A stretch of 64,000 bases of DNA from Candidatus Omnitrophota bacterium (GTDB lineage Bacteria; Omnitrophota; Omnitrophia; Omnitrophales; JACROU01): NCBI GenBank assembly GCA_029261035.1, contig JAJDCD010000012.1:62001-126000 (forward strand), written 5' to 3'. How positions within the stretch are numbered: position 1 is the stretch's first letter; each line of letters begins with the position of its first letter. This document shows, in pieces, positions 40,208 through 64,000 of the stretch. The notes under the pieces are model-generated. The model was given only the letters and a program-made list of their open reading frames with translations, was not told the DNA's origin and did not search any database. The position numbers were made by a program, and so were the translations under genes.

Positions 40208-43200
40208 TTAGGCAGCAATCTGGATTAAATACTGTGCCATTGCATTCTTGAAGAGGTGTTTTGTAAACTCTTCTAATCGCACTCTATATCGGCCAGATTC
40301 TTTGGAGAAATAACCTTCTCGGTTTTTTCCCTGATCTAAAAGAAGGGATAAAGATGCCATCAAAGCAAAAGGAGATCGCTCAAGAACAATGTGATTATCT
40401 GATCGATCTGCACTGCCTGAGTTCGAATAGTTAATGATTGGATAAAACGTTCTATTCTTCCCGAGACTATTTTTAAGTTGCTTCAACAGGGATTCAAGGT
40501 CTCTATCAACAAATTTAAATTGCTGATTATTTACATAATCCGCTTGAAGCACAACTTTCTCATCTTTAATAATTATAATTTGGCTATTAGCTAAACTTAA
40601 GAACTGTTGAACACCCACCACTTCTTCGACTTCAGAATTCCGAAGCAAATCATTCCAAACAGAAGCTTTTATAATAAGATATTTTTCTTCTTCTAACCTT
40701 AAAGCATCAAAAAATAAATTCTCTACCCTCGAACCTTTCTCTCCCAAACTGGATGCACTTAAAGCCTCTTCAGAAAATACTGCTGTTAAGCCAGCGCCTA
40801 ACAGTTGAAACACATCTTTAAGAGGGTCTTCATCACCAACGTTCTCTAATTTCCCCTTGATACTTTCTACATCAATCCCTTTAATCACTTCCTGAACTCG
40901 TTTAAGCACTTTTGATATTGAGAATTCCTCTTCTAAATCCATGTTTAAAATAGTATTTTCCAGAATTTTCAATTCGATCTTTTGTTTTAAACTCTCACCT
41001 TCATCTAACTGTTCTGATAACATTCTAATCTCATCTATAAATTGCTCTAATCCTTTCACCTGTATTCTTTGATTGAGATAATCGTACAAATCTTCCATCG
41101 AAGAAGCCACTGTCGGAATACCTCCAAGTAAAATCGAAATTAAGTTGGTTTTCTGATCCAAATCACTGATGACTACATTTTTAGGTTCTCTTTCATATAG
41201 GTTAGGGTTACCAAGAAAAGTTGCTATTTTTTCAAATATCTCAGCTAATTCATGGGAAGATTTAATGTTCTTAATGGAAATATCATAATAAGAAAGGATA
41301 CGTTCACTGTGCAGATTACCTGTAAGAACTTCTTCTAATTTAACTCTAATATATTTACTTACCCTATCGGATTCCTCTACTTCCACATATTCTTCTACAG
41401 CCTCATGCAATAACAGCTGTTCTTTTTCTTCTGCCGTTAAAAGCTCAAACTGAGTTTTTGTAATTAAGAGAGATCGGTATAAAGGATTGAAGGAAGTTCT
41501 GAGGGCAAGGATAGGGATTTGTTTTACAGGAGTTTGAGCTTCTTCGGAGTCGTAAATATCTAAAACAAAATAATTCTTCTCTCCATCATAATGCACCACT
41601 CTCTTCTTTCCATCATTCAAGTATATTCTTTCCTCAAAAGCTTCTTCAATCACATGCCAATGAGTCTTCTTTCCAATTGAAAATATTTGAGCTAATGGAC
41701 TCATTGATAAAACAGTTTTTTCAATACGCCTACTCACTTTTGGCAGAACAACTGAAACTATCGCATCTTTAATATCTTCACGAATAACTTCGGGTGCTTT
41801 TGCATACACAGAAACATTTAGGTTTCCAAAGATAGCAAACACAAAATACTCTAAAATATATTCTAACTTTTCACGCTCTAAATCGCTCAATTTTAACTTA
41901 GTTGTTTTTAACAGCTCCACAATATCCTCTGTTGAACGCAATCCTTTATTAGGATCTACAAGCATTTTTTCGTCAGCAATTATTTTTAATGCCCTGTAAA
42001 CCAAAGAAGTACGTTCTAGATAATTTAAAACAAAACGAATTTTATCTTCCGGTCGAACAAAGTAAGTACCTCTAATCTCGGACTGATGTTTATCCAATGA
42101 TTGCTTAAAATCCTCAAAAGTAATTTGATCTGGAACTAGCTCCGCTCTTTCTCTAATTATAGGAAGGGCTCTGTATTTAGCCTTAACCATAATCTCCATG
42201 GTAGCTTTTTCACCCATAACTCTTTTACCTTTATCATTGATATAAGCTAGCGGATAAACATGTTCTCGGTTTTTCTTTCCTACTGAAATCCCATTAAACT
42301 GAAGGTAACTATAATCATTACCATAAAACTCGCCCTGATCCCCAATCTTTAAAATCTCATTTACATGAACCGAAACTCCCGTTTCTCTTTCTATGTGTTC
42401 AACAAAATCTTCCAGAGAAGAAGCTTTGTCTGTTCCCAGAGGCATAAAATCAATAGACCTTCTCCCACTAATCATAGCTGTAAAGGGAATTCCGTCCGTT
42501 ACCAATGCAGCCTGTAATCGGGTTACATAAGGTAGCGCATTCCTTATATCCCGGAAATGTAATCGAAAGTAATTCTTCCTTTTTTGTAAAAATGCATGGT
42601 TTTTTTCTGTCAGTTCTTTTTCTGATTTTGCTTGTTTAAGAACAATTCCCATTGTCTTCAAAACCCCTTTAACGTCCTGTTCGCCTCTTCTAAAACTATA
42701 ATTCCCAGGCCACAATCTTTTTGGCTGACGAACTAAATTTCCGAAGCCATCCAATATTTCTGCTCCATTATCTGCATAAACAATCAGATACCTAGCATCC
42801 TCATCATCCATCCCAGAAGTTCTCAATGCCTCGTACACCTTTTTCATTTCGGGCTTACTCGCCAATCGAGCCGTTGCGAAAGAAACAAAAACCTTACCCT
42901 TTAGCAATTTAACTAAAAGTTCTATCGCTTTTTTTGACAATTTGCCATGCTCAAGCGTTAAAGTACCGTCAATATCCAGCATCGTTGCAACAAACTGGGT
43001 TTTTATTAATTCCTCAAATTCTTTTTTTTCTAACAGCTCAACCAAATCATAAATCACTTTAGCTTTAGGGTATACTTTTCTCTCTTTATACAACCCTTTA
43101 AAATGAGGTTTTCCATCGAGAGATTTCCTTGCCGGTTCTATATGCATACGATAGAGACTCCCTGCTCCATCATTGATAATATCCGCCTTATACAAAGCAA

Positions 43201-46200
43201 AAGCCATTCTAAAAAGGTCTCTTCGATTCAACTTGTCTTTCAATTCCTCCGAAGGCGTAAAAGCGTTATCTACTAAATCTTGAGGGGTTCTAGGTTTTGG
43301 GTTAGCGTGATGCTTAAACATGTCTCCAAATTGATCTGCAATTAAAATAGCCTCAACAATTTTAATTTCATCGTTTGAAAACCCTAAGGAAGGTAGAAAC
43401 TGATAAGCAAACTCAATTGATTTTTCTTCGTGAAGTAAATGTTGTTCATCATAAAGAGCTCTCTCAGTCTTTTTATCTGCTGTTATCGTGGCTTTCCCAA
43501 CATCATGCATCAAAGCTGCCGCTCGAATTAAAGCTCTTGGATTCATACCTGGTATATTAATGCTATTAAAACCATCTGTATCCACACCCTTAAGTACATT
43601 TTGAGTGTGTTGCTGAATATCAAGAGCCAATGGACGACCCCGACCATCCTTACCTCTTCTTCCCGCGGGTCTTTCCATCAAAGATAATAAAGGGGGTGGT
43701 AAATATTTAAAAATCTTTTTAATATTCAATCTAAAAGTAACATCATCGGTCTCTAACATTTTCTTTACTTGACGACTGCCTTCAACATCCGATAACTGGT
43801 AGATTTCTTTCACATAAGCTCGTGCTTCTTTCAGAGTTGTAATAATATTATTTGCTACAGTTTCATCGCTTTTACTTTCAAAACCTGCAGAATAAACAAT
43901 TTGCTTAATTTGCCTATCTGTTAATTTAGCTATTTTTTTCGCCATTCTTTTTTGAGCGGCTCTACCTAACTCCGTTTGAATAAATCCAAAAAACTCTCTC
44001 TCATAATCGGTAATTGCTACAGAGGCATAGGTCCCCGGCTTTGTTATATCGGTAGGGTCACCCATAAAATCTTTGATGGCTTGAATATTAAAACCCTCAT
44101 TCTTTAAAGTCCCACGAGCCCGATAGTGAAAACTGCCTCCAAAGTCCCAAACGACAGGATTTCCATTAAGTCTTACAGAATTATCTATTCCGTTATTTTG
44201 TTTTGCTCTACCATCATAGTTCAGAGTAATCATATCAAACAAAAAACGTTCTAACACTTCATTGCTTTTTCTCAGTTGCTCATCTGAACCTTCTGGAAAC
44301 TTTTCTATAAGTCCCGGAATTCTTTTACTAGCAATGGCATATTCCGTACTCCCCGTTCCTGGGTGTGTCATTTTAATAATACGCACATCTGTGGGCACAT
44401 TTACCCCTAACTCTTTTGCCATTCTCCAAGCAACATACTCTGTTCTTAATTGGTTAATTTCAGGGTAAAATTTAACGTAGTACTCATCTCCATTCGATTT
44501 TCTTTTCATAAATCGAGCTTTGTTAGACCCAAAAGGTCCCCAAGGAGTAGTCCCCGTTAAATCCTCACTCAGCTCATGCCCCTGAATCAACATGTACATC
44601 CATGAAGTTATTTTAATTTTTCCGTCTTCATTGAAATAATCTGCCAATTTAGAAAGGAAGGTTGTTTCAGCTATATCCGAATTAGGAGTTTCTCTAAAAA
44701 AATGGCTTATTTCATCTTTTTTCGCTTGATCTAAAGCCACGCCATTCAATTCACCACGACGAATAATTCGATTAAGAGCATCAACAAAAGAGTGATTATC
44801 TTCATTGCTATGCACACCTACCAGAATACCCATTCCATTTTCAAATGGATTTTGATTTCTGATTACCTCCTCATAAATCTCACTTTCATCAATTAATCGA
44901 AAATGATCCAGCTCAGCAGGAGACATTTTTCTTTCTCCCACCCCAAACCTACCACTGGATTTATCAAAAAAATCACTCGCTCTCAGAGATGTAATCACCT
45001 CTCCTCTATCATCCATTAACTGTTCTTTAATTGCTTTGAGTTGTTGAAAATGTTCTTGTTTTATAAATACAACCCCTAATTGACTTACAGGAATAAGTCC
45101 TTTAAAAGGGATGACAGGTAGCTTTCTATGCCCAAAATCAATACCTCTTGTAATTTTGGCTTCATTGTAATATTCGCTTGGAATCAAAAATAGAGCTCCG
45201 TTATAATCAATAAATTGCTGACTACCCGCCCCATAACCACCGCCACCTTCTCGGATCACATAATCATATTCATTTGCTATATAACGGACATCTGATTTCC
45301 CCTGATTTCTTGCTTTACGATCCGTAATAGGAGGCTGTAAACCTCGAGTAATTCCATCTAAAAAAGCTTCTGTTCCTGTAACAGAACGAATAAGCCATTG
45401 CCCTTTAGGAAAAACATCTTCTTCGTTCAACGTTCCTTCAGGGGCAGCTCCATGATAAAGCCTTCCTGTATTCAAACGTCTATAGATAGCCCTGTATTTT
45501 GTTTTTGGGTAGGAAAACAAGAGCTCTAAAATATTATTTCGATACTGTTTCCCAAAAACAACTTCGATTAAAGATCTTTTGATTCTTCTCTTAGCTTTAC
45601 TTCTATCATCTTCAATAACAGCTTCCAAAACTTTTTCTTTTTTTAATTGTTTCATAATCCATTCAGCAACTTCAAATGCTTTTTCACTATCGGATATATT
45701 CTGAGAAGCTCTATAGCGAATTCCATCTATAGCACTTAATTTGATTTGCTCAGCAACGTAACGATACAAGCTTTTATCAAAAACGTCATTAATCACTTTC
45801 ATTACTTCGACCGTTGAAGAAATTTTTCCTAGTGCCTCTAAAGCTTTTTGACGCAAATTCGCAGATATTTTTTCATCCTTAAAGATCTCAATAATAAACT
45901 TTTCTGAGCTTTCATTCGCCAAACGGCCATTCACTTCAATAAGAACACTCAACAGTTCCTCATTAATCGAAGACTCTATAAGAGCTTTACGCAATAAATT
46001 CCTCAAAGTTCTATCAGCCCCTGAAGGCCTTGCATTCGCTACTAAATTCAATATTTCTTTCTTTAGATCTACATTTGTTAATTGCTCATACATGTTAAGC
46101 AAAGTCAGCGCCCAATCGGGATGATTAACATGAACAATCCCTTGGACTAATTCAAAGAGATAAACCTCTCCTTTTTCCGTTAATTTTTCCGAGCCAAATC

Positions 46201-49200
46201 GCTCTAAAACATCTTTATAGGAACGTCGAATATTAGGTTCATGTAAATTGTCTCCAAAAACAATAGCACGTATCTCTGCCATAATAATTGGAGATGTTTT
46301 CGGGTTGTTATAAATTCTAAGCAAATCCACAGGCTTATACTTTGACCGTTCTTTTGCTATCGATCTTTTAACTTTGTTTCTCTCTCTAGAACGAAGTACT
46401 TTCAAAGTAGCTCCATTTAAATCCACATTATTGTCTCTCAATTCAATATAAGCCCCTAATCTCACTTTCCACTTTTCAGATTTTTCAACAATTTCTTCTA
46501 GGATAATGAAAGCATCCTTTGTTCCTATCTCCCCCAAAGCCTTTATGAATCGATGAGGAGAGAATTTACGAACACTTAATTTCCCTTTATCATCCCCAAA
46601 ATACAGAATATTCTTTTCTACCATCTCCACTATCAGAGAAACAATCATAGATTGATTTTTATCTGTCCTTATATATTCAAATGCATCTAAAAATTGTGCT
46701 AATTCATTTTCTTGAAGTTTCTCAGGGCCTAAAACTGCCACCATTAAATTTAGCCTATCACCTTCATTTGAAGCAAATCTTTCAACTTTCCTTTTTAAAG
46801 ATCTTGAAGTCAAATATCTCCTTTCATAAACTTTGACAATTTTTTCTTGGTACGGTTTTAATACAGAAGATAAATGTTGCTGCTGGCCAAACTCAACTAA
46901 CGTATTTAGAATCGCTGCTCCCAATTCATTATTCTTGTTTTGATCTAATTTAGACAATAACCAATCAATGCTTGGCCCAATCTCATTTGCCCATTTTGGC
47001 TCTTTTAAAATATGAGACAACAACCTAACTGCCATAAGTTTGTCATCAACAAAACTTTCCTCCTGCGATAAATACTTATACAGAAAATTGATGTCTGATT
47101 TGTCTAATGTATATTGATTTGATCGAGGATTTTTGTATTCTGCCCATAGCGCATCAATAAATTTCAAAGGGTCATACCCTGACTCTTCAATGAGGTAGGT
47201 AACATCCGAATCAATCATAAATAAACGTGTGTTATTTATTTCTTCTTCTACAGTAAATTCGTACTCATCCCCTTCCTCATCTTCGCCAATCCACTCATAA
47301 TCTCTTAAAGTAGGAACTGCTATCAAACGGACAAGAGTTGCAAAAGATTTATGTTTATAGGGTATCTTTTTCAAAATTTCAACAGACTTTTCGGAACCTG
47401 AAAGCGCTAGACGAATTAACTCCATTTGAGCAAAAGAATACTTCCCCGAATTCACTTTTCCAATTCGAGTCAATTGAGCTTCAAGAACAGCAACAATCTC
47501 AGCCTTAAATACATCTCTTATTTCTTTAGGTAATACCTTATCCACATCTTCACCACTTAAAACGCGAGTTGAAGGTTCTCGCATTATTTTCTTCTTTAAG
47601 GAGGTAACAACAAAAGGAATACGACCCGAAGAGGCTTCAAAGTATTTAATAACATCACTGTACGCATCATACGAGACATCAATAGAAGTAATTGACTCTA
47701 ATGCTTTAAGTACAAAAGCATCTTTTTTGAGGATTTTAGCCGTAAGATAAGCAACAGCCGCAAGGTCTCCAGTCTTAGCTAAAGTTATAATGCGTTCTAA
47801 TACGATACCTTTATACCGTTCTTGATCCTCTGGAGAAATTCTTATAATTTCTTGAAGACTCATAACTCTGATTTCAGCTACAATCAAATCATGAAAATCT
47901 CTTTTCATTCCTGGAGTCATCCTAAGTAACATATCATGGTTCATACGACTCTGAAGTAATTTTTCAACTTCATTAATTATATATTCTGTTGGCTGAGAGT
48001 AACTTTTATACAATTCAATCAGTTGATCATAGGTGTAATATCCAACATCAAAAGTCTTATCCTTGAATAAATCTTCAACACGTATATCTCCATGCAACCA
48101 CATCTGAAGCAAACTCTGATAAACAAAATTTTTCACAGCAACATCATTTGGAGATTCGTTAATAACCTCTAAATATTTTTCTATAATTTCATCAAAATAC
48201 CGAGTTAATATTCCAATAGGAAGCTTTTGTATTTGCTCCAGACTCCATTCATTTTTAAGGCGGTACTTAAAGGAAGGCTCAACCACTTTCAATTCACTCG
48301 GGTCTAATATGCCAAATTCGTTCAATTCTGCTGTTGTTGACTTATCCTTAATCAACCCACGTATATATGCATCTGGCGACTTAGTAGAGTAAATAAAACG
48401 AGCTGAATTTTTGACATTTTCTTCTCTGAATAAAATTTCCTTTAAAGAGTATCGTTTCCTGTAGTTTTGAGCAGAAAGATATTTATAAACAATTTCCCTT
48501 TGAAAAAGCAGGTCATAGAATACCAACTTAGAATTAAAGCGAAAACCAGTCAATATATTCACAACGATCAATCCAAGCCTCTGAAAAGGTAATAATGCCA
48601 AGCTGTAAATAAAAGCAATAACCCCAACACTTATATTAATAATAGGTGTTGTCCATGGAACAGAAACACGATTAACTGTTATTATCTCAAAAAATACCCT
48701 TATAAACTCTAATGGAAATGCAATTAATACATACAGCAATGCAATAGGCGCCATAAATACAACTCTGAAAAAATCAGAAATTGAGAAAATAACATCTAAC
48801 CCGGCAGGAACCTCTTGATTCTCTTTTAATATTTCAAAATAATCTTTAAGTGGCGTTAAACGATGTGCCGTCTTCCATAAATTCCTAGCTTCTTCAGAAC
48901 CAATCAAAAAGGCCCTACTTTCTTCTAATTTATTAATCAAAACAGAAGGTTCATCCAACACCTTCAGTAAATCAGAATAAACTTTAATCAACGTATCTGA
49001 ATAGCTTTCTTCTGTCTGCAAACGTTCAATTAATAGTGCAAATAAAAAATTCAAGAATTTTTCTTTCTTTTCTTTTGTCAGTTCTATTAATGTGTAGTAA
49101 TTCCAATCTTTTAAATGATCTTTTAATTCATAATAGAAAACTTCCACCACCTCCATAGGAAGGTCATTCACTTCACTTAGACTCAAATTCCCAACTCTTT

Positions 49201-52200
49201 TTTTAACCATATTGCTTAAATGCCCATGACTACGTCTATTCCAATACTCAAAACTCTCTTCTGCAGGCAAAAACTTAAGATTATAAGGAAGTCCTATTTT
49301 TTTAGCTGCATTTCCAAAAACAAAAAAACTAGGTCGTGTTGGGTAATTAAGAATAAACACATCCACATTCCACTCTTTCATTTTCTTAAAGACATGTCCT
49401 TTAAATAACAATCTATCAACCCCATACAAAGCAGAAAGAATAAATGTGATTCCTCCAAAAACAATAAATGCATCTGCAACAGCTAAACTCATCAGATTCC
49501 ATGAAGCCCCAGCCATAAGAAGGTAGCTTTTAACCAGACCCAATCCAAAATAAAACATTGCTCCATAACTAAGGATTGACAAAGAGGTAAGAAAACCTGC
49601 CATTTTAATGACTCCCCAAACCCGGACATCCCACCCTTCTCCACCACTGTCTTTTCCAAAAAACAATTGAGTGATTGCTAAGGCAGTTACAGAATACGGA
49701 ACTCTAAACACACTAATAAGCATAAGTTTTGCAAGACTAAAAGCACTCCAAATTAAATTGAATATACTCCCTAATAAAATCTCAAAAAAACCTGCTATCA
49801 GAGGAAGTAGAATAATGAGAACCTTCAATCCCCCCAACATAAAAGTAAAAGGATATAACATAAACTTCATACTATTTGTCCATACAGATTCAAAAAAAGA
49901 GGTTTTTTGTTTTTGAAATATGATTTTTAGATCTTCTAGACTTATCTCGTCACTGAAATTCCACTGAACTAAATCCATCAATTCAGTTATTCCGCGTCCA
50001 TCCTCTGCTTCTGCCCAAATCCTCAACAAAGTCCTCTGGGTGTCTATATCCATAAAATTAATAAGGTCACTCAACCCTATATTATTATGTTCAGATATTA
50101 AAATAGATGGGATCTTAGACTCAACGCCCTGTTTCTCCCAAAAATTTATTAATTGAGTGATTTTCCGGTGATATAAATACCCACGAACCAAAGCTTCTTC
50201 ATGTTCTTTCTTTAATTCAGGGGACAATTTGTCTGATTCTCTAACTTCAATAGTCTTATATACAGCTTCAGCTACAGCTGATTTAAATACCTTTCTTGAT
50301 TTCTTATTAAGACCATTTAGATTCACTGCTAAATTTGTTTCAGAAATACGTTTAATTAAAGCCTTTTGAATTTGCTTACTTTGATATGGTGACAATACGT
50401 CTCTCCACCCTTTAAACCAAGAAAAATTCTTATTAAATAGACGTTCGACAAAGAAATATTTCAGAATATTTCCAGGAACTTCAGAAGAAAATATCAAATC
50501 CTCAACAACATCATTCCTATAATTATGATCAGAGAAAACTTTCTCTAAAACAGCCGTCACAACCAAAATAACCGCTATCAAAGCAATAAAGCCAATTGGA
50601 TTCGCTGTCAAAAGGGCTATATTAATTTTTCCATTTAATAGACTGGCAAGCAAAAGCCACTCTGATACAAAGACAATCAAAGAAAGAAGATCAGAAAAAC
50701 CCAACTCAGGACCTCTATCAATTAATTTATTTACGGTATAACCTGGGCTTAATGCTGCTAAAAAAATGGTATATAATAAAATAAACCCTAAAGATACAAA
50801 GGCAGGGACTAAATCGACAACAAACCCTAAAACACCTCTCACAATACGAATAATTTCTAAAGGTAGTTTCAAAATAAAAAACAGCATTTTCTTAAGAAAT
50901 GAGACCTGTTTAGACAAATAGAGCTTTTCTATTTCCTGCAAACTCAAAATGTTCTCAAAACTCCAACTTTTTTTATCCACCAAACGGGAAATAGGTCTTT
51001 TCAAGCCTTCTTTCTTCATTAATTCATACACAACTCTAAGAGGCTCTACATCGCCTCCATTAACTGCTATTGTAAATTCTGATATTAAGTCACTCGATAC
51101 TCTAAAAGAACCCCATAAACCTATCTTTACATCATTCTCATACGCTATCACTTGGGTTACTTTTGATTCCGCTCCTCTTTCTAACCAAAACCGCAATAAT
51201 TCCACTCTTGAGTCATGAGCTATATGCCCTCCCTGAGTTTCACTAAGTTGAATTAACCTTCTCGTTACCTCTTCTTCAAATTCTCTCTTTACATCTTTAT
51301 TCAAGTTTAGTATTTGCCCTAAAGTGAAGTCCAACCATATTCTGCTAGCTATTTTCGACCTCATATCTTTTCGCACAGCACCAGGTAGGTCATTCATATC
51401 TGAAGCGCTCAACCTAGAATTCTCTATCTTAGAAGAAATGGCATTCCTATATATGTCTGTTTTATAGGGAGAAACAAAATTTAAATACTTCAAAGGAAGA
51501 AATAACGATTTAAATGATGTTGGAACTTTATAGAACCCTTCGTAAAAAAATGGCTTTTCAATGAGTTTGCTCAAATTGTTAGATATACCACTTTGAAAAT
51601 AAGGTTCATCTAGAAATTTTAAAAATAAATACATACCGAACATTACGAATAAAACTAGCAAAGAACTGCCAACAAGAAAAGACAATGACCCTAAAGCAAT
51701 TTTTGCCCAGAAAGCCAATTGAACCCCAAACAGTGTTCCTAATGTAATTTTTGCTCCAACCACCCCCCCAACAATCATTTGAATCACCCCGATAATAAAA
51801 GCGGGTGCTTTAAGATCTTCATAGCTCGTTCTGTCGTCATTAAAATAGAATCTTACAAATGCAGGAACTGCACTCATAAAAACAAAAATACCTACAATTA
51901 AGGCTGGTATTAATTTAAGAATTAAAATAGGAATTAGAATACTGTGATACAAAAAAGAGGAAAATAAATAAAACAAACTCGTAGAAACCAGAAAGACGGA
52001 CTGTATAATTTTTCTAGGTAACCCTGCTCGATACTTCCCATAGATAATTGCCAAATCTTTAAGAGAAAAAAGATCCAACGAATATCCATTGCTCGAGATT
52101 AGCTTAGTAATTCTCTGAAAACGCCCTTCTAATTTAATCACTTCTAAAAAGGCTTTTTGAGGATAGAACGTCATAAGACTATTTACATTAGGGAGTTTAA

Positions 52201-55200
52201 TCTGAGAACTCCCCCATGTCGTGGGTCTTAACTTAGAATCCCCCATCAAATCCGTAACTCGATCAAAATACTTTTTATTTTTCCATAATTCAAAAATAAA
52301 GTATTCCGCATAATTTTTCTCATCAGTTCTTGAATTATTCATATGGGCTCTAGAAATTAAAGTGGCCATAATTGCTTCGAGATATAAATCAATAACATGC
52401 TCTTTTAATAGAAGAAATTCACTAACAGAGATCTGCTTAAGAGATTCTTCGACATCATCCTTATATTTTCTCAACACCTCTGGGCTTAGATCATTAAATT
52501 GAGATGCGTAGTTAAACCCACGAATATGACTCCCTAGCATGGTATCAATATATGTTGAACGATAAAAACCAACAGCATAGACCAAACCTGGCAAAGGAAG
52601 AAATCGATCTTTCCATGAGTCTTTTACTTTAGGAAAAGTATTCAACATAAATTCTTCTGAAGAAATATATTTAATAAATTTAAAGAACTTCCCTGAGAAT
52701 TGTTTCTCATCAAGACTCATCAAGAGCTCAGAGATGATCAATTGACTCAAGAAAAACACGATAAAACTTAGTGTGATAGCTCCAATAATCCCAAATAAAA
52801 TTGAAAGCCCCCAAGTAGCTAAAGAAGTCAAATTGAGTAAAGCAAAATACGGGTGGGCCAAAATAACGCTTCCTCCTAAGCTTAGAAGGGCTGGCAAACC
52901 ATAGAAAGGTCCGTAATCCTTATTGGAAGTTAAATGCTTTGGAGTATTCTCAAAAAAGAATCCTCTAAATGCAATTGATGGCGAAAAAACAAATGCGACA
53001 AATAGATGTTGTACAATAAGAGGTATCATTTTCACTAAAACAAAAAATGTTGTAATAAGAAAAGAACTAATTCCCCAAATTAAAAAGGATGCATTCGTTA
53101 ATAGTGATAAAGGTAAAGTCAGAATATATTTCCACCAAGGATTTTTGTTTTTCTCAGCAAGAGACTCCCATTCTTTTAAAGATATTTTGTCTAATCTCCA
53201 AGGCGAACTTCTATTCATAGTTTTTATATCAATCAATCGACTCATTCTTTTCTGCGAACCTTCTCTCATCCACAATTCTAGTAAAAATTTTTGAGCATAC
53301 TCTCTAGGCTTATTTCTAATACTCCAAGTTGGAATATTATTACTTGAATGATCTGCAATGATATCCGTAGTAACAGAATCAGGCCCCCTTCCTTTCCATA
53401 GGGTAAACAACTCATCTCGAGCAACATCTCTTGGGTTTGGATGAGTTGTGCGATGATCGTCATGTGTTGCTATATGAATCAAACGTAGAGTAATTTCTTT
53501 CTCAAACTTTATTTTAAATTGCTCTGGCAAAATATTGACGTGAACAGCAGGTATTTTCTCTATCGCCTTAAGTACTTCTCGTCGCTGAACCCTATCGCCT
53601 TTTAAATAATTTTGAAGAGCCGGTACTAATAGACGGTATCGATCATTAAACTGATAAGCCACTTCTTTATTGCTCAGCACTATTTCTCTTAGCTCTAATT
53701 CCTGCTTAACATCATAGACATACTCTTCCGCTTCTGCTGTTTCAGTCCAATTTATAACATTTTTCTCAAAAGCTTTAAACGTATCTACTTGAGGGACAAA
53801 CCCTAAATTCTCAAAGAAATTGAACAGCAATTCTTTAAACTCTGCTTCTTCTGAAATATCTTCTATTTTCTCACCTTTTAAATACGCCGTTAAGAATCTT
53901 CCAATTTCATGTGTCAAATCTCGATGTTCAGGATGAAGTTTTAAATAATCTTGAATTTCTTTATCTGAATCAACTTCTTCCAGAAAATGTCCATGCTCTT
54001 CAAATAGTGTCTGGATCCAATCTTCAAAGTTAAGTCCATCTGCAATAACAATAGTTCCATCTTCAACACCTTCTGTTGTCAGGTAAAACCCCTGAACATC
54101 TCCTTCTGGGAATAATTCTGAAAGCAAATCTCGAGATACACCAACTTTGACTTTTTTAATTTTTTTAGAATGTAATACAGCAACTGGAAACATCCCATAA
54201 AATTGTTGAAAAACAGATGTGAGTAATGCCTCATTCCTTGCAGTTCTTACGGAACTAACTTCCATCGAATAGTTACTTCTTAACACCTTATTCAATTCTT
54301 CAAGATCTTCCGCGCCTGTATCCAATACCTTACTTGGAAGTTGAAGGACTTTGTTAATCAAACGATTCACCCAACGCGAATCAACTTTATCTAACCACGT
54401 GCCAGTTTCGCTCAACTCTTCAGTCGGAATTTCTAAAAGTGCTAATTTAGACAAAGCCCAATAAAACTCTTCCTGAAAATCTGGCCTTGCCAATTTTAAG
54501 CGAGGAACAACGGTTGAACTAGAATAAGCCCCATTCAGCCAAACCTTTAACATTCCATCGACATTGAATTCATTCATATCTTCCAAGTGTGCTAGTATCG
54601 ATTTTCGATGTTTTTTTCCTTTTAAAAGCTTTCTTAATTGATATCCTTCAACTTCTTTCTTAATAGAACTCCATTGATATATAGCTGTGCTTTCCTTTTC
54701 ATATTCTGTTAAATTTTGGAGGATTTGAAAACCTCTTTCATTTATTATTTTGAGAACATTTTTATCAAGCAACCTTCCCACAAGGTCTTCTTCATCACGC
54801 CTCTGTTTTTTGAGCAAAGTTCTTAAGAGCTCCAGCTCTTCTTGCTCGCCAGAGCTATTCTGATATGCAGCCAAAAACAAAGTGAAAATTTTAAACTCTG
54901 GAGATTCTTGTGTAAGATAAAAGTTCAATTCTCTTGAATGCAAAAAGAAACTTCTGTGTTTTTTCCATAATTCATTAAATTGACTCCTATCTGCCTTACG
55001 ACAAATAGTTATTAACTTCTTTAAGCGTTCATATTTTTCAGACTCAATCCCTGCAGCCAATCTATTAACATCCTTGATGAGATGTGCAGAAACAAGCTTA
55101 TCTTTGGAATTAAAATTAAGTTTACTCTCTAAATATTCTCCTGATTTTAAAGGTGTGTGAGACTGTTCTTTCTGAAGTAATTTTTCTGTGTTTTTTTGAA

Positions 55201-57106: not shown

Positions 57107-57132
57107 CTCTCGCATAAGAATTCCGCTTCACG

Positions 57133-57160
57133 AGAAAAAGAGAGCTTATACTCTTTTTCT
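57133..57160 (-). terminator. Possible terminator of giant 2
   Basis: AGAAAAAGAG and CTCTTTTTCT form a 10-bp stem with an 8-nt loop ending at the giant 2 stop codon. On the minus strand a T-rich stretch forms the second arm itself. The stem is AT-rich and overlaps the stop, so it is a weak candidate. Confidence 0.4.
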
Positions 57161-60100
57161 TATGCAGCAATCATGATACGGCGAGTTGCTTGGATAAGAT
57201 CCATGATTTGGTCTATGAATTGTGAGTTAAACTGGATGAAATACTGATTCCCTCTCATCTCAATTTTTAATTCTTCGGGGATACGATCTTGGAGCAATGA
57301 TGTTCCTTGTGAAGAAAGCAATAATCCGTAAAGTAAATGCGCAGAAAAAAGATCTTTGGATGAAATGCCTGGGTAGTTCTTTTGGTGAAATTGACGTGAA
57401 GTTTGTCCCAACAACATATTGTCTTCAAAGTTTTGTTTTGGAGCAACGACCAAAGATGATTTTGGCAACCACATTGTAGGTAGCTTTCCCAAAACCTTCT
57501 TTGCCAGTTCTCTGCTTTTACTAGAAAACAGTTTTGCTAATTTTGCATTACTCTCTCCTAGATTATTAAACTGCCCCAAATACAAATTAGGCAAAAATCC
57601 AGCAATTCCTTCTGTGCTTTCAAACAAGAATACTCTTTCGTCATAAGTAGAATACAGCATCTCCCGAACATCCCCATACACAGCTTCAGAAGATACAAAT
57701 ACGATTACTTTATTAGGTTGATTTTTCAAAATTAGCTTCAAACTTTCCATCTCTCCAATAAGGTCATCCAAACTAGTTTTGCCAGAAAGTGGAATTGCAA
57801 CAACACCAAAACTTTTATCAACTAAACTCGAAAAAAAACTTTTAAGCTTTACCACATCAAACCCTAAAGATTCTATCCCAGAATCAGTATTTTCTAAAAC
57901 ATTCACTAAATTTTGAGTTACCAGTGCAGGAGATTGGCTTGGAAACAACTCTGCATACAACCTTTCTGCCACTTTCGTATTAGCTCCAAGAACCCCATCC
58001 ATTAAATCAACAGTTACCCTACGAGCAGCTAAAAGGTCCTCATCAGAAATACGAGCACTCAATGGATTAGATTCTAATTCCACCAAAGAAGAACCCAAAG
58101 AAGACCCAGATCCACTTACAAATCGACTAAAAAAGCCCCCTTTCTTAACAACTCTAGGAGGAGCTTCTCTTCTGGCTCTGGATACTCTTGGTTTAGCAGC
58201 GCGTGCATCGGCCGCTGTTTCAAGCTCAAGATCATTTATTCCTACTGCATAATCAACAAAATCTTGAAGCTCATCTCTATTCGTAGGCACAGTCAACCGT
58301 CTCTCAGCAACAGCTTTGAGAATTCGATTAAAGGCTTTCGTTTTGTCCGTATAGTTCAAATTCTTCAAAGAAGGAAATGCGATTAAAAATGCAGATAACT
58401 GATCTCGTGTCTTTATTTTTTCAGAAGCAACTAATTGAATTAATTGATTAAAAGCATCCGAAAAATCATTCCCAAAACTTCTAATCGCTTTTTTGAAGAT
58501 AGGATTCGTTTTGAGAGCTTGTAAATCAAGAATTTTAACATCCACAGCTCCACTGGAACTAGCCACAACAAAACGATTTTGCAATATGGCAAATGAACTC
58601 ATTGCCCCACCAACAATCCCACTTATATTCTGTCCTGTTTTAGTTTCCAGAACACCTACGCGATCTTTTTTAAAATAGAGAAGACTGGAATCTTCAGAAA
58701 ACTCAATCTTGGCAGAGTAACCATCAACACCTTTCAAGGTGGTTATTTTTCCACTTCTCAAATCAATTAGCACTTCGCTTCCATAATTACTATCTGTTGT
58801 TTTAGCATTTCCAGCAGATAAATATTGACCATTAGCTGAAAATACTGGAACTCCTGTTAAGTGGATAGGGAAAGTACGGACCTTAACTTTATCAATCAAA
58901 CGGTAGACTTCAAAGAAATATTGAACTTGCCCACTTGCAAAATCCCTTCTCCCAACAAATAAATACTCTCCTTTTAGAGAAAAAACAGCTCTGTATACCC
59001 CTGAAAAATCAAATCCAAACTGAGATGAGATATCTTCTCCTTTAGAAAAATCATATATTTTCTCATAGTTCTTCGCTTCCCTATTCTCATCAAAATAGGT
59101 GTAATGAACAACAAGATATTTTCCATCTGCAGAAATCATTGCTCTTCTTGCATGAAGGTCAAAAGAGATTTCTCTTTCGAACCCAAAAGTAAGATCCACT
59201 ACCTTACTTTCATTGTTTCTATAGCGCACAAAAGCCATATCCGTATCTCCTAGAAAATTTACGGACAAAACATCACTTCCCAATTCAGAACTCATATTTG
59301 TTGCTATGTCGTTTTCTAATTGATATGCCTGATCTGAAGCTCGATCTTGATAAACAATGAGAAGGTTTCCCGAATCTGAAAACTCAAGTCCTCCAGCTGT
59401 CAAAGAAACTCCTTCTAAAACAACCTTATTTCCAGAATCAACATTATAAAGATCCGCTGACTGCTTACTCGAATCGCCTCCAGTTCTAACATGGGTTGTG
59501 TAAGCAATATACTTTTCATTTGGAGAAAACTTAAATCCAACCGCACTGCTAGACATTCCTCTTACTACCTTAACGCCCGTCTTTACGTGATAAACATCCG
59601 TTGAAGTAAAGGACTTTACAACAATCAAATTACCCGAAGGAGAGACTTCTCCTAATTGCACCTGACTTCCAAAGTTAATGGGTAATTGCTTTCTGCTAAG
59701 GACATCAAAAGCAACCGCTGTATTGTCACGATACGACACAAAAGCAATAGATCCATCTTTAGAAAAAGATACTTTTTCTGTCGGTTTAGAACTTCCCAAC
59801 GAAGATCGTTTCAAAACTTCCAATGCAGCATCTACACTCTGAGAGTCGGTAAATGCATCAAACCAAGACGAACCATTACCATTCGATCCGTTTCCATTTC
59901 CACCCAAGCTAGCTGCAAGACTGACGCCTGAACCCAAACTTTGAGTCAGAGCAGACTCCAACCTACCTCTAAAATAATCTGGAGATTTCCCTTGCAGGAT
60001 TAACGCTCTTTGGGATTGTAATTTCAACACATCCGAAATTTGAGAAACAACAACTGGGCTTTTTCTGGATTCCAACATAGATTCCAAATAACCCTCACTC

Positions 60101-61647
60101 TTCAACTCACCTGAAATCTGAGGGGTCAACCGCACATAAGACATCTTCTTATCCTTAGCAAATTGCTGTACAGCCTCAGCGTGATACCCTCCCGTAACTA
60201 AAATAGCTTGTCGGGCACCTTTATCTTTCATATACCTTTCAGCATGATTCAACATAAACACTTCTCGTTCTTCAGCTCCAAGATAAAAATTCATTGCCGC
60301 GTCAAACACGTTATTAAAGAATGAAATATCTTCAAACACTTGCCTTTTTACTCTTTTTTCACTATTTAGTTTTTCTAATTGATTTACTATTTCAGAAGGT
60401 TTAAATCTCAACAAAGCTCCTGCATCTTCATTTAACCATTGATATTCATCGCGTGTTAATTGAAGGGTAAATATTTTTTCTAATAACCGAACGTTTTCCA
60501 ATAAGATAACTATCTGCTCTTCCATTTCATTCAAAACTAAAGACTCTAAAATGAGTCCTTTTATTTTTTGGATTTCCTGAAAAAATGGAGCTGATTCCAT
60601 CTCCGATTTCAAGATTTCCATTTGAATCAACTTCTTTAATAGAGGAAAAGACTGAAATGAAAAATCCTTAGGCAGCTCTTTGAATAATCGTTCAAAAAAA
60701 GGTCTAAGCACAGCTAACTGACTTTGAGACAATGTGCCCTGAGAAGACGCTTTCAAAGAAAGCAAAGTCGCATTTAACTCATCACCTAAGTTCTTACTTA
60801 ACTTAAACGATGAAGTTTCTTTCAAAAAGCCTTGAATCTCATTATTTAGCTTAGACGCATTCCACTGACTCTCAAGTTGTTTCATGCGAAAAAACCGAAT
60901 AAGCATGGGCCATTCTTTTTGAAATTCCGCTTTTTCTAAATCAATATTTAAACGTTCGAGTGCAACTTCCTTCAAAAGTGAAAGTTTATTGATAGAACTC
61001 AAATCAGCTTCATTTTTAGAGGACATAAGATCTGAAAACTGCTTTAAATCCGTATTAAGATAATGAGGGATAAAAGCTTCTAATTGACGTTCTAATTTTT
61101 TAATGAAAGCACCTGTCGAAACAGACTGTCTCAAGACAAACTGAAAATCTTGGCGGTTTTTCCTGTAGTTCAAAGAATCTTCAATGCCGTAGGCGTTTAA
61201 CTCACCCTTAGAAACTTGATCTAAACGATCTAACAAAAAAAGCTCCGGTCCTGTCAACTCTGCTTCTTTCATTAATTTGTCTGCAAATTTCAAATTCTTT
61301 TTAGGACTTTCAGGAAAGAAGTTCAAGATTTGAGGGTCCAACTTTTCAATCCCCCCCTCTAACAACATTAAATCCACTCCTTTTACATCCGTTAAATACT
61401 CAATCATCGATTGGATATTTTTTTCAGCTTCATAATGTCCATGGGCGCTTTGTATATGATAAAGAGTAGGTGCCTCTGGAATACTAAAAATAGATTCCAC
61501 AATTGCTGTATCTTGAGGTAAGCCTAATAATTGATTTGTAGGTGCGCTCTTCAATTCAGGACGAACAACTTGTGTCCAAGCCAAAGAAGTAGAAATAAAA
61601 TTTAATAGAATGAATATGCTAATAATTTTTAGTGTTAATTTGTACAT
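57160..61647 (-). CDS. Giant 2: exported ChaN/TraB-like and beta-propeller protein
   Basis: Function unknown. The start is set at 61647 (MYKLTLKIISIFILLNF), a signal peptide with AGGAG about 10 bases upstream; the longer frame to 61701 would cover the promoter. About 1,495 residues. A domain at about 55-500 resembles that of giant 1: YHIQSAHGHYEAEKNI, LMLLEGG, YGIEDS and ILVTGGYHAEAV. A Gly/Asn/Ser linker (ASLGGNGNGSNGNGSS, about 575-592) leads to a propeller at about 630-1050. Its repeats follow a WD40/TolB-like pattern such as FKFSPNEKYIAYTTH, MISADGKYLVVHY and FSANGQYLSAG. A basic linker and a Rossmann-like region come next, then the short C-terminal module shared with giants 1 and 3, ending RRIMIAA. 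Confidence 0.88.
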   Translation of the reverse strand: MYKLTLKIISIFILLNFISTSLAWTQVVRPELKSAPTNQLLGLPQDTAIVESIFSIPEAPTLYHIQSAHGHYEAEKNIQSMIEYLTDVKGVDLMLLEGGIEKLDPQILNFFPESPKKNLKFADKLMKEAELTGPELFLLDRLDQVSKGELNAYGIEDSLNYRKNRQDFQFVLRQSVSTGAFIKKLERQLEAFIPHYLNTDLKQFSDLMSSKNEADLSSINKLSLLKEVALERLNIDLEKAEFQKEWPMLIRFFRMKQLESQWNASKLNNEIQGFLKETSSFKLSKNLGDELNATLLSLKASSQGTLSQSQLAVLRPFFERLFKELPKDFSFQSFPLLKKLIQMEILKSEMESAPFFQEIQKIKGLILESLVLNEMEEQIVILLENVRLLEKIFTLQLTRDEYQWLNEDAGALLRFKPSEIVNQLEKLNSEKRVKRQVFEDISFFNNVFDAAMNFYLGAEEREVFMLNHAERYMKDKGARQAILVTGGYHAEAVQQFAKDKKMSYVRLTPQISGELKSEGYLESMLESRKSPVVVSQISDVLKLQSQRALILQGKSPDYFRGRLESALTQSLGSGVSLAASLGGNGNGSNGNGSSWFDAFTDSQSVDAALEVLKRSSLGSSKPTEKVSFSKDGSIAFVSYRDNTAVAFDVLSRKQLPINFGSQVQLGEVSPSGNLIVVKSFTSTDVYHVKTGVKVVRGMSSSAVGFKFSPNEKYIAYTTHVRTGGDSSKQSADLYNVDSGNKVVLEGVSLTAGGLEFSDSGNLLIVYQDRASDQAYQLENDIATNMSSELGSDVLSVNFLGDTDMAFVRYRNNESKVVDLTFGFEREISFDLHARRAMISADGKYLVVHYTYFDENREAKNYEKIYDFSKGEDISSQFGFDFSGVYRAVFSLKGEYLFVGRRDFASGQVQYFFEVYRLIDKVKVRTFPIHLTGVPVFSANGQYLSAGNAKTTDSNYGSEVLIDLRSGKITTLKGVDGYSAKIEFSEDSSLLYFKKDRVGVLETKTGQNISGIVGGAMSSFAILQNRFVVASSSGAVDVKILDLQALKTNPIFKKAIRSFGNDFSDAFNQLIQLVASEKIKTRDQLSAFLIAFPSLKNLNYTDKTKAFNRILKAVAERRLTVPTNRDELQDFVDYAVGINDLELETAADARAAKPRVSRARREAPPRVVKKGGFFSRFVSGSGSSLGSSLVELESNPLSARISDEDLLAARRVTVDLMDGVLGANTKVAERLYAELFPSQSPALVTQNLVNVLENTDSGIESLGFDVVKLKSFFSSLVDKSFGVVAIPLSGKTSLDDLIGEMESLKLILKNQPNKVIVFVSSEAVYGDVREMLYSTYDERVFLFESTEGIAGFLPNLYLGQFNNLGESNAKLAKLFSSKSRELAKKVLGKLPTMWLPKSSLVVAPKQNFEDNMLLGQTSRQFHQKNYPGISSKDLFSAHLLYGLLLSSQGTSLLQDRIPEELKIEMRGNQYFIQFNSQFIDQIMDLIQATRRIMIAA

Positions 61648-61672
61648 ATATATAAGTCTCCTAAACGACACT

Positions 61673-61701
61673 ATTTTCCTTCTAAAGCAAGTATCTGTCA
61701 A
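61673..61701 (-). promoter_or_regulatory. Probable promoter of giant 2
   Basis: On the minus strand, a perfect -35 TTGACA (61696-61701) is followed after 17 bases by GAAAAT (61673-61678), a 4-of-6 match to the -10 consensus. It lies about 26 bases before the chosen ATG and supports that start over the longer frame. Between it and 61830 I see nothing else. Confidence 0.45.
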
Positions 61702-61829: not shown

Positions 61830-61957
61830 GTGACTGTCACTGGCCTGTGCTTGCACAGAGCTCAGTGACTGTCACCCCAACTAGCTTGGTGATAGTTAAC
61901 GCGTTGTGATAGTGACAGTCACCATGCTCTGCGGGGTCGCAGGCTGGTGACAGTCAC
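61830..61957. repeat. Cluster of GTGACWGTCAC palindromes after giant 3
   Basis: Four exact cores lie at 61830-61840, 61865-61875, 61912-61922 and 61947-61957, the first two as GTGACTGTCAC and the last two as GTGACAGTCAC. The last touches the giant 3 stop codon. A worn copy (GTGATAGTTAAC) lies near 61889. The first pair and second pair are in opposite orientation at the centre base. Confidence 0.85.
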
Positions 61958-64000
61958 TATGCGGCTCTTTTAGCTTTTGATTTGGCCTTGAATTCTGCCA
62001 AGAATTGATTGGCCAGTTTAACGACATGACTGAAGTTCATCACGATTTGATTTGTTTCAGAGTTGTAAATGCCTGCTAGCTCCCCAGCTGTCAAAGCACC
62101 CACTCCATTTCTGGATAAGTAACGGCCTGTTTCGAATAAGAATTTGTTAATCAATTGTTTTTGTTCATTACTTAAACGACTATCCACACCTTTTGTTTCT
62201 TGATAGAGAACAGAAATAACTCCTTCTTGACCATCCGCTCTACTTACATGAACTACATTCTCTTCTCTAGCACCTTTCTTTACAAGATTTTTAATGGTAT
62301 CTGAAACAGCCTGACTTGTAATATTAACAACAGCAAATCCGGTACGTCCTACCGCTGTGGTTAATAACGGATGGTTTTTAAAATTCTCTTTTAATTGAGC
62401 TGCTAAAGCAGGATCTTCCACATGAATAAAATGCGCTATTCCCGAATCTACTGTCAATGGATCGATCAAGCGTTTAAAGGATGCTTCACTATCCACCTGC
62501 TGGCTATTCGTCACAAATCCTTGATCTTTAATATTCGGAGCTGGTGAAGAAGCTGCTAACGCACTTACAGCTATTGCATTTTCAACCAATTTCATGGATA
62601 CCCAATCGGTTGCACCACTATAGTGAGTTCTTAGATACTTACTTGCAGCGTTTTGTAATGTTAATGGTAATGTAGAGACAAAAGGAGCTACACCTTCGTT
62701 GAGATAATCTTGTGCGGTGTCATTCATTCCTCGAAGAGCCATACGAATAACTGGATTATCTAAATCTTGATTCTCAATAGCCTGTGCTAAACGTTGATTG
62801 AAAATTTCTAAGAATTGGGCCAGATCGGTATTACCTAATTTTTGAGCTGCCAATTGAGTTCGCTGGTAAGCGATCAACTCATCTGTAGCTGCTCTCAAAA
62901 CTAAGTTATCAATACTGGATAAGGCCTCAATGTTTTCTAAATGAGTTAATTCATGAATTAAATTGATAGCTAATGCATTTAGGGCTTCTTGATCTCCTGT
63001 AGCTGCTCGATCCACAATCAATTGATTCAAGACAATGGTTCTGTTTTCTAAATCAGCATAGGCTGCTACCCCCGTTAGTGCTGCATCAAAGTTTTCAGAA
63101 CGAATACTTCGAACAATGGATGGGTCAATATAAGCTCCAGCATTTATTCTAAGTGCTTGTTCCAAAGCTTTTGCGATAACTCCCTTATATTCTTGCATTT
63201 CAGCCGGCAACACGGAGTCTAGTAGTGATTTCATCTGATTTTCCGTTTGGAAAGCCCCCAAAATGGTTTGCCCTGGAATCGTAGCGGCACCCAAAGATCT
63301 AGCTGACACTTGAGTCATAAAACTCGTTACATCCGTCATTGGAAGCGTAAGAGATTTAACTTGATCATTCACCTCGGTTATGACGGTCAGTTCTTCTGCT
63401 CTTTCTGATTCTTCTTGTCCTTCAAGGGCACTGATAACTTCAGCAAAGGTTTCCCCGATTGCCTCTGGGTGTTCTCGTTTCAGAGCATCAAACTCATCCG
63501 CACTTAAAGTTGGCAATGCTTTATAAGGTGCCGATAGCTCTGTTGAAATAGCCTGTACTTTCTTTCCGCCCAAGACTTCTTTTGCTTGCTCATTAATCTG
63601 AGCTTCTAAAGATGCTATCTGACTCTTAAATCCTTTAAGAACTGGCTCAACCTTCAAAGCTTGAGTTGGATAATCATTAACAAAACCTTGAAGTTCTTCA
63701 ATATAATCTTTGCCTAATTGAATCGCAGTTAAACTATCACTACTTTTCATAGACTCTTTTACTTCTGCACCTTTTTTCAATATATTTCTTGCCGCTATAG
63801 CATCTGTCGAAAATTCCATGCGACGAGGAGCTCCTTTATAATTCACAACAATAGAAACGACAGCTTCGTCTCCCTGGGCTAAAGCTTCCGTTAAAATTGT
63901 GTTTAATTCGGGAATACGTTTAACAGCTTCATCCACACCTAAATCTAATGATGGGATTGCACTTACAGATTCTGAGCTCGTAGACGCAATCACCGACTCC
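61957..64000 (-). CDS. Giant 3: exported-family protein with HExxH metallopeptidase-like domain (5' end outside window)
   Basis: Function unknown. The frame is open to the window edge, so the N-terminus, and any signal peptide, is not seen; a GTG at 63993 is internal. At least 681 codons are visible. A zinc-peptidase-like motif lies in the middle: LAINLIHELTHLENIEALSS, followed about 20 residues later by ATDELIAYQRTQ, a pattern compatible with a gluzincin HExxH plus downstream Glu. Helical segments with coiled-coil character precede it (ELQGFVNDYPTQALKVEPVL). The C-terminal 45 residues match the ends of giants 1 and 2 and finish KAKRAA. Codon and base use are like the neighbours. Confidence 0.85.
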   Translation of the reverse strand, partial: ESVIASTSSESVSAIPSLDLGVDEAVKRIPELNTILTEALAQGDEAVVSIVVNYKGAPRRMEFSTDAIAARNILKKGAEVKESMKSSDSLTAIQLGKDYIEELQGFVNDYPTQALKVEPVLKGFKSQIASLEAQINEQAKEVLGGKKVQAISTELSAPYKALPTLSADEFDALKREHPEAIGETFAEVISALEGQEESERAEELTVITEVNDQVKSLTLPMTDVTSFMTQVSARSLGAATIPGQTILGAFQTENQMKSLLDSVLPAEMQEYKGVIAKALEQALRINAGAYIDPSIVRSIRSENFDAALTGVAAYADLENRTIVLNQLIVDRAATGDQEALNALAINLIHELTHLENIEALSSIDNLVLRAATDELIAYQRTQLAAQKLGNTDLAQFLEIFNQRLAQAIENQDLDNPVIRMALRGMNDTAQDYLNEGVAPFVSTLPLTLQNAASKYLRTHYSGATDWVSMKLVENAIAVSALAASSPAPNIKDQGFVTNSQQVDSEASFKRLIDPLTVDSGIAHFIHVEDPALAAQLKENFKNHPLLTTAVGRTGFAVVNITSQAVSDTIKNLVKKGAREENVVHVSRADGQEGVISVLYQETKGVDSRLSNEQKQLINKFLFETGRYLSRNGVGALTAGELAGIYNSETNQIVMNFSHVVKLANQFLAEFKAKSKAKRAA

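What the first reader, a model, noticed from the sequence alone, without database searches (positions are those of the whole stretch)
40208..64000. Three consecutive giant exported proteins: a modular family with shared ends and different cores
Giants 1 and 2 carry the same signal-peptide plus ChaN/TraB-like N-terminus, and giants 1, 2 and 3 share a C-terminal module, while their middles differ (membrane repeats plus enzymes; propeller; metallopeptidase). Side-by-side order on one strand suggests duplication and core exchange. I infer a dedicated surface or secreted system. Giant open reading frames have been reported from Omnitrophota, but I do not know of a description of this arrangement.
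Basis: partly seen in the sequence, partly recalled or inferred. Interest (0 to 1): 0.85.

Follow-up and report, generated by a model that had tools for sequence, protein, structure and literature searches.

The report
Punctuated giant exported proteins in Omnitrophota
The three giant genes belong to at least 54 giant exported proteins that fill 22% of this uncultured bacterium's genome; they share a common end tag and nearly cysteine-free sequence, most share an enzyme-like head, and a short motif marks their domain boundaries like punctuation, which suggests a secreted polyprotein system not described in the papers I could read.

Summary
Giants 1 and 2 share a signal peptide plus a ~500-aa head related to the ChaN/EreA/TIKI fold. 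Giant 3 lacks that head; its 680 aa in the window are the end of a 23,696-aa protein. All three share a C-terminal tail: a hairpin and an amphipathic helix ending exactly in -AA. Pairwise BLAST misses the tail; profiles find it clearly.

The genome has at least 54 tail-bearing giants (199,456 aa, 22% of the assembly); 41 carry the head. Three further features were not in the finding. (1) Cysteine is purged: 41 Cys in the mature parts against ~1,594 expected. Embedded enzymes keep mainly catalytic Cys (isocitrate lyase, GAPDH, UDP-glucose dehydrogenase), while an embedded PEPCK has none and the cell's ordinary copy has 13. (2) A motif, AxSLG, occurs 258 times, in all 54 giants, between and never inside recognised core domains. 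(3) In other families of the order RSE[LVMA]R replaces it (157 against 2.7 expected).

I read these as exported modular precursors, probably cut at the punctuation motif, whose parts work outside the producing cytoplasm. Export, modularity and both ends are well supported; cleavage and target are inferred.

The parts
40208..56758 (-). Giant 1, 5,516 aa: signal peptide + N-module, multi-pass membrane repeats, HEAT, HD and HAD hydrolase domains, C-module, tail ending QIAA
55199..56758 (-). Giant 1 signal peptide and ChaN/EreA-like N-module
43286..43537 (-). HD domain of giant 1 (aa 4408-4491)
   Evidence: Pfam HD 5e-5
42209..42982 (-). HAD hydrolase-like domain of giant 1 (aa about 4593-4850)
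   Evidence: Pfam Hydrolase_3 1.6e-7 (matched part 4593-4668)
40742..40756 (-). AxSLG punctuation motif (ASSLG, aa 5335) before the C-module of giant 1
40211..40324 (-). C-terminal tail of giant 1 (last 38 aa)
   Evidence: 16.1 bits leave-one-out
57160..61701 (-). Giant 2, 1,513 aa ORF (likely start ATG at 61647): N-module, beta-propeller, C-module, tail ending MIAA
60058..61647 (-). Giant 2 signal peptide and N-module (structure predicted)
59902..59916 (-). AxSLG motif (AASLG, aa 596) just after the N-module of giant 2
58432..59829 (-). beta-propeller-like core of giant 2 (extent approximate)
   Evidence: THOC3-type beta-propeller 1.1e-6, three stretches
58093..58107 (-). AxSLG motif (GSSLG, aa 1199) before the C-module of giant 2
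57163..57276 (-). C-terminal tail of giant 2: predicted hairpin + helix
61957..64000 (-). C-terminal 680 aa of giant 3; the ORF continues outside the window to C4:195047 (23,696 aa)
63289..63303 (-). AxSLG motif (ARSLG, aa 23249) of giant 3
62941..62955 (-). HELTH metallopeptidase-like motif of giant 3 (aa 23365)
   Evidence: direct reading of the sequence. No Pfam peptidase family matched above its cut-off
61960..62073 (-). C-terminal tail of giant 3, ending KRAA
   Evidence: 7.5 bits leave-one-out

Best explanation
These are precursors of an exported, modular polyprotein system. SHOWN by sequence: most giants start with a Sec-type signal peptide and a ~500-aa head of the ChaN/EreA/TIKI-like fold with an invariant His/Glu/Arg/His set. 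Then come exchangeable domains separated by a short motif that is specific to the lineage (AxSLG in this family, RSE[LVMA]R in other families of the order). They end in a C-module and a hairpin-plus-helix tail ending exactly in -AA. The chains are almost free of cysteine. INFERRED: the chain is exported by Sec. The motif is a cleavage or other processing site that releases single domains or enzymes; the head, related to TIKI-type proteases, or a free-standing copy of it, is one candidate protease. The tail marks the full-length chain for sorting or anchoring. The cargo (isocitrate lyase, malate synthase, PEPCK, GAPDH, PPDK, kinases, DNA-binding arrays, propellers, RHS filaments) acts outside the producer's cytoplasm, plausibly in or on a prey or host cell.
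For: Head: 43 copies in the genome, motif residues invariant; AlphaFold pLDDT 85; the top seven VIA-align matches are all in one superfamily (EreA-like, EreC, ChaN, HopBA1; Z 8.1-9.4). Tail; giants of other genera in the order end in -[ASM]A. Export: signal peptides; 41 mature Cys against ~1,594 expected; relatives of the order also Cys-poor, 0.61 per 1000. Enzymes kept functional: the only Cys of the 3,570-aa ICL-MS-PEPCK-dehydrogenase giant is the ICL catalytic KKCGH Cys; GAPDH SCTTN and UDP-glucose dehydrogenase GGSCFPKD Cys are kept; embedded PEPCKs in two genera both changed ACGKTN to ASGKTN while other catalytic residues stay. Punctuation: 258 AxSLG against 12.1 expected, in 54/54 giants, 238 distinct DNA 15-mers, none inside core Pfam domains (7.3 expected), 36/41 giants have one within 150 aa after the head (10.9 at random), 52/54 have one 90-450 aa before the end (29 at random). 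Lineage switch: other families of the order have 157 RSExR (2.7 expected) and 3 AxSLG; same-family relatives have 37 AxSLG (1.4 expected) and no RSExR. Module exchange at motifs.
Against: No cleavage has been observed; no protein data for this organism. No secretion channel, tail receptor or protease was identified. The two largest giants carry only two motifs each, close to chance, so they are probably not cut into many pieces. The motif could be a structural linker, an attachment site or a folding signal. Cofactors such as acetyl-CoA, GTP, ATP and NAD are scarce outside cells, so the proposed site of action is uncertain. The head's activity is inferred from fold and residues only. About 13 of 54 giants lack a detectable ChaN-type head (three are cut at contig ends), so a cis-acting protease cannot explain all. 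The domain-boundary test used a limited set of Pfam domains with approximate extents.
Confidence: 0.5

Rival explanations
1. Unprocessed giant surface or coat proteins: the chains stay whole on the cell surface as adhesins, scaffolds or a coat. AxSLG and RSExR are hinges, attachment or glycosylation sites between folded domains, and the tail anchors the end in the outer membrane.
For: Published proposals for Omnitrophota giants are adhesion or a coat (PMC10066038). RHS repeats and propellers in the cores. The two largest giants have almost no motifs.
Against: Does not explain conserved catalytic residues in embedded soluble enzymes that have lost their other cysteines, nor why the linker sequence is fixed within a lineage and replaced wholesale in another.
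Confidence: 0.25
2. Giants are whole delivered effectors: a head-and-tail delivery chassis carries exchangeable enzymes into prey or host cytoplasm, as MARTX proteins do, where kinases, HTH arrays and metabolic enzymes find ATP, DNA and substrates. It may combine with cleavage at the motifs.
For: Cytosol-type cargo with intact active sites: two HRD/DFG kinases per chain in two giants, AAA array with 7 P-loops, tandem LuxR-like HTH arrays, macro domain, GAPDH, PEPCK. Omnitrophota are predicted predators or parasites (PMC10066038).
Against: No translocation domain or injection apparatus found; chains of 20,000 aa are hard to deliver.
Confidence: 0.2
3. Cytoplasmic fused metabolic megaproteins: signal peptides are not used and low Cys has another cause.
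For: Many cargo domains are of cytoplasmic type.
Against: Ordinary proteins of this genome carry 8.1 Cys per 1000 aa while the giants carry 0.38; the standalone PEPCK has 13 Cys, the embedded copy none; most giants have a clear N-terminal signal-like segment.
Confidence: 0.04
4. The repeated motif is a trace of a mobile DNA element inserted in frame, or a DNA recombination signal.
For: It sits at module boundaries.
Against: 238 distinct 15-mers for 258 motifs, and 106 distinct for 117 RSExR motifs; all six Ser and six Leu codons occur.
Confidence: 0.02

Closest known systems
Giant ORFs of Omnitrophota (Velamenicoccia, Omnitrophia; Seymour et al. 2023, PMC10066038)
   Same: Same phylum, ORFs over 20 kb, transmembrane segments, predicted extracellular parts, few annotated domains.
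   Different: Described there as poorly conserved, with few domains. No common head, common tail, punctuation motif, Cys purge or embedded central-metabolism enzymes are described in the passages read.
ChaN / EreA / TIKI-TraB superfamily
   Same: Fold match (Z 8-9.4 to EreA-like, EreC, ChaN, HopBA1) and invariant His...Glu...Arg...GGxH set.
   Different: Here it is the head of giant chains; Pfam ChaN matches only 3 of 43 copies, and only weakly.
MARTX multifunctional toxins
   Same: Analogy only: conserved ends, exchangeable enzyme cargo in the middle of a giant exported chain.
   Different: Sec signal peptide instead of a type 1 secretion signal; different ends; repeated lineage-specific linker motif.
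RHS / YD-repeat proteins
   Same: Giant 3 includes RHS repeats (Pfam 2e-110 in its first part).
   Different: 23,696 aa with the family tail at the end; typical RHS core and toxin tip not shown.
Polyproteins with repeated recognition sites (viral polyproteins, cyanobactin precursor peptides; from general knowledge)
   Same: Repeated short sites between cargo units that differ between lineages.
   Different: Bacterial, exported, tens of large precursors per genome; cleavage not shown.
C-terminal sorting signals (LPXTG, PEP-CTERM, T9SS CTD; from general knowledge)
   Same: A short signal fixed at the very C-terminus of many unrelated exported proteins.
   Different: Amphipathic helix ending in -AA with no transmembrane segment, no basic tail, no known motif.

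Membership tests
ChaN/EreA/TIKI-like superfamily (N-module) | alpha/beta fold of the superfamily | tested here: met
   pLDDT 85; seven best structural matches all from this superfamily, Z 8.1-9.4, next row 6.9. Foldseek alone gave no significant hit.
ChaN/EreA/TIKI-like superfamily (N-module) | conserved His/Glu/Arg/His active-site set | tested here: met
   H69, E97, R461, H489 invariant in 43/43; H69, E97 and H489 lie at or just after strand ends in the model. Superposition of side chains was not possible.
ChaN (Pfam PF04187) | sequence match above the family cut-off | tested here: not met
   only 3 of 43 match at E up to 0.01, best 0.0061. Filed as superfamily-level only, not as ChaN.
TIKI/TraB/PrgY metalloproteases | proteolytic activity | not testable with these tools
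   No TraB/PrgY Pfam match at E 0.01.
MARTX toxins | RTX repeats, cysteine protease domain, type 1 secretion signal | tested here: inconclusive
   None appears in the Pfam lists shown, but bulk lists were cut at 25 families. N-terminal signal peptide argues against.
RHS proteins (giant 3) | RHS repeats | tested here: met
   PF05593 2.4e-110 in the first 3,015 aa.
Polyprotein | one precursor cut into several mature proteins | not testable with these tools
   Sequence evidence for repeated boundary motifs only.
Known C-terminal sorting signals (LPXTG, PEP-CTERM) | motif plus transmembrane helix plus basic tail | tested here: not met
   amphipathic helix ending -AA, hydrophobic every 3-4 residues, no LPXTG and no basic tail after it in the 43 printed C-termini.

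The most novel reading that the evidence does not exclude
A bacterial order makes tens of exported polyproteins per genome, spelled with a lineage-specific cleavage code: a shared protease-like head, domains separated by AxSLG or RSExR sites, and a -AA tail. It uses them to run cysteine-free versions of central-metabolism enzymes and kinases outside its own cytoplasm, for example in prey.
Probability: 0.3. Interest if true: 0.97.

Novelty: categorically new. Interest (0 to 1): 0.9.

Why it matters
Giant genes of Omnitrophota have been known for years but were called poorly conserved and of unclear function. The shared head, tail and punctuation give a grammar that cuts them into testable modules, found across an order. 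Cysteine-free isocitrate lyase, malate synthase, PEPCK, GAPDH and kinases behind signal peptides would be a first sign of exported central-metabolism enzymes on this scale. The abrupt change of linker motif between families points to an unknown reader, perhaps a protease, which can now be searched for. It also offers a direct way to test how these tiny, possibly predatory bacteria interact with other cells.

Tried and rejected
Idea that giants carry the only copy of housekeeping enzymes: rejected for PEPCK, since a normal copy exists; for isocitrate lyase the only full match in this genome is inside the giant. Idea that the motif is a mobile DNA element: disfavoured by codon diversity. Idea that the tail equals an SsrA degron: the tmRNA tag ends in LPLAA, but no giant has Leu at position -3 (0 of 54). 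Fold of the whole C-module: model weak (pLDDT 65), only the tail confident. Foldseek against PDB gave no hit with E below 0.001 for the head. First tries with wrong frames or over limits were repeated.
Full report
THE OBSERVATION. Three consecutive minus-strand ORFs lie at 40208-56758, 57160-61701 and 61957 onward. The window is C4:62001-126000 of a 2.70-Mb, 26-contig, 95% complete genome. Stitching the 272,718-base contig shows that giant 3 is a single open frame of 23,696 aa starting near C4:195047; the window holds only its last 680 aa. Upstream of it are two RND pump proteins, a HlyD-type and an outer-membrane efflux protein; downstream of giant 1 are surface-polysaccharide genes. A further giant on the same contig (C4:35440-46152, 3,570 aa, called X3570) starts like giants 1 and 2.

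SHARED ENDS. N-termini: G2 vs X3570 30.5% over 599 aa, 1e-77; G1 vs G2 3e-12; G3 not related beyond the signal peptide. A profile of the three finds 43 ORFs with this N-module in the genome. C-termini: BLASTP finds nothing between G1, G2 and G3. But 40 of 42 N-module ORFs end in Ala, 32 in Ala-Ala. A leave-one-out position matrix of the last 35 residues separates 43 tails (mean +18.5 bits) from 40 control ends (maximum -21.4); even without the last two residues G1, G2 and G3 stay at random frequencies of 0.0001, below 0.0001 and 0.0013. The profile then found 11 new giants, all matched exactly at the last codon, including one of 21,275 aa. The tail has hydrophobic residues at -5, -15, -18/-19 and -22 and is predicted as hairpin plus helix (pLDDT about 77-92). 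In all: 54 giants, 199,456 aa, 22.2% of the assembly, 17 adjacent pairs closer than 1.5 kb, all 17 co-directional.

THE HEAD. An alignment of 43 heads has invariant H69, E97, G154, Y455, R461, GG and H489. AlphaFold gives pLDDT 85; the seven best structural matches are all ChaN/EreA superfamily members (2qgm, 2rad, 6xcq, 6xcs, 3b55, 2g5g, 5t09; Z 8.1-9.4; next row 6.9). That these entries form one superfamily is from general knowledge. Pfam ChaN reaches only E 0.006 in 3 of 43. Outside the order, 11 of the 12 genomes checked, chosen among those with one or two matches, carry the head as a free protein of about 500-610 aa (in one of them split between two frames), and this genome has a free copy without the tail, ORF C16_405715, 497 aa. 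I infer that a free exported enzyme was the ancestor.

THE CORES. Pfam shows exchangeable cargo: isocitrate lyase + malate synthase + PEPCK + ELFV dehydrogenase (X3570), PPDK (two giants), ARMT1-like, methyltransferase, NUDIX, DnaJ, metallophosphatase, HATPase, macro domain + histidine phosphatase, LRR, GAPDH, UDP-glucose dehydrogenase, protein kinases, AAA arrays, LuxR/sigma-type HTH, WD40, RHS, glycoamylase, AceK-like kinase. Tandem HTH arrays are visible directly.

CYSTEINE. The giants have 0.38 Cys per 1000 aa against 8.1 in 35 other ORFs of the contig (P 5e-12). Beyond residue 50 there are 41 Cys where about 1,594 would be expected; 28 of 54 giants have none. Several survivors are catalytic: isocitrate lyase KKCGH (the only Cys of X3570), GAPDH SCTTN, UDP-glucose dehydrogenase GGSCFPKD. 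The genome's ordinary PEPCK has 13 Cys; the embedded copy, and one in a 2,063-aa ORF of another genus, have none, both with ASGKTN in place of ACGKTN and the other motif residues kept. Exported isocitrate lyase ORFs in two other genera keep the catalytic Cys. I read this as adaptation to life outside the reducing cytoplasm while catalysis is retained.

PUNCTUATION. Short-word counts showed ASSLG 55 times against 0.47 expected, AASLG 37, AQSLG 33, AKSLG 25. The pattern [AG]xSLG occurs 258 times, in 54 of 54 giants, against 12.1 expected from composition. It never falls inside the recognised core domains (7.3 expected) and once inside domains plus heads (36.6 expected); PEPCK (2185-2839) has motifs at 2163 and 2843. 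The DNA is diverse, 238 different 15-mers. 36 of 41 giants have one within 150 aa after the head (random 10.9 +- 2.8) and 52 of 54 have one 90-450 aa before the end (random 29.2 +- 3.4); median spacing is 396 aa. Homology between different giants begins within 30 aa of a motif in 54% of cases (random 13%), although a shared motif can itself attract an alignment start.

OTHER LINEAGES. The head is in 54 of 58 near relatives and 142 of 285 genomes of the phylum. In other families of the order the giants also end in -[ASM]A (the matrix trained on this genome scores 13 of 14 of them at random frequency under 0.01), but their boundary motif is RSE[LVMAI]R: 157 against 2.7 expected, AxSLG 3. Same-family relatives have AxSLG 37 (1.4 expected) and no RSExR. 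Giants of other classes have neither, and several of them end in -SV, -SL or -AL. The bulk replacement of a linker sequence suggests a partner that reads it.

MECHANISM. Shown: signal peptide, head, boundary motifs, tail, cysteine purge, preserved active sites, order-wide grammar. Inferred: Sec export, cutting at the motif, sorting by the tail, and action outside the cytoplasm. Cleavage is favoured over a passive linker because the motif is sequence-specific, recurs about once per domain and was exchanged as a set between lineages. The cargo needs cytosolic cofactors, which makes prey or host cells a plausible site; nothing here shows delivery.

LITERATURE. Giant ORFs in Omnitrophota are described as poorly conserved with few domains and proposed as coat, adhesin or degrading proteins (PMC10066038; PMC11573180; PMC12057145). 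No text in the held library joins Omnitrophota with glyoxylate and isocitrate lyase, and searches found no description of the shared ends or motifs. Preprints and most subscription papers were not searchable.

LIMITS. One draft assembly; three giants are cut at contig ends; start codons are mechanical; domain extents are approximate; Pfam bulk lists were cut at 25 families; the motif was found on the same giants it is counted in, so the same-family relatives (37 against 1.4) are the held-out test; no protein evidence.

Noticed in passing
G000:C4:35440-46152 (L014:440-11152): A 3,570-aa exported giant fuses isocitrate lyase, malate synthase, PEPCK and an ELFV-type dehydrogenase; its single Cys is the catalytic one of isocitrate lyase.
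   Followed up: yes
G000:C18:285802-310035, aa about 7200-7800: Tandem array of LuxR/sigma-4-like helix-turn-helix units in an exported, nearly Cys-free giant; another giant (C15:57771) has repeated XRE-type HTH units. DNA-binding arrays in exported proteins are unexpected.
   Followed up: partly
G000:C24:62551-81954: 6,467-aa giant with seven P-loops and dynein/midasin-type AAA domains behind a signal peptide.
   Followed up: partly
G000:C26:68177-132004 and C4:123957-195047: Two paralogous giants of 21,275 and 23,696 aa share about 30% identity over long stretches, lack the ChaN-type head but keep the tail; giant 3 has an AceK-like kinase stretch at about aa 19049-19164.
   Followed up: partly
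G000:C16:204493, 213754, 222674; C18:333634; C24:422993, 426894: A second N-terminal type (signal peptide then ARPxSfxExA) combined with the same tail and with C-modules of the ChaN-headed giants.
   Followed up: partly
G000:C24:327859-328266 (L151): tmRNA tag ends in ...VALPLAA, while none of 54 giants has Leu at position -3 although most end in AA; possible avoidance of the degradation tag.
   Followed up: partly
G063, G057, G196, G185, G232, G260 (L172-L183): ChaN-headed giants of other classes end in -SV, -SL or -AL instead of -AA and are less depleted in Cys (4.4 per 1000).
   Followed up: partly
G000:C16:528766 (1,975 aa) and G001:C39: A headed giant without the tail and a relative's isocitrate lyase giant split in two frames; assembly errors or real decay.
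   Followed up: no
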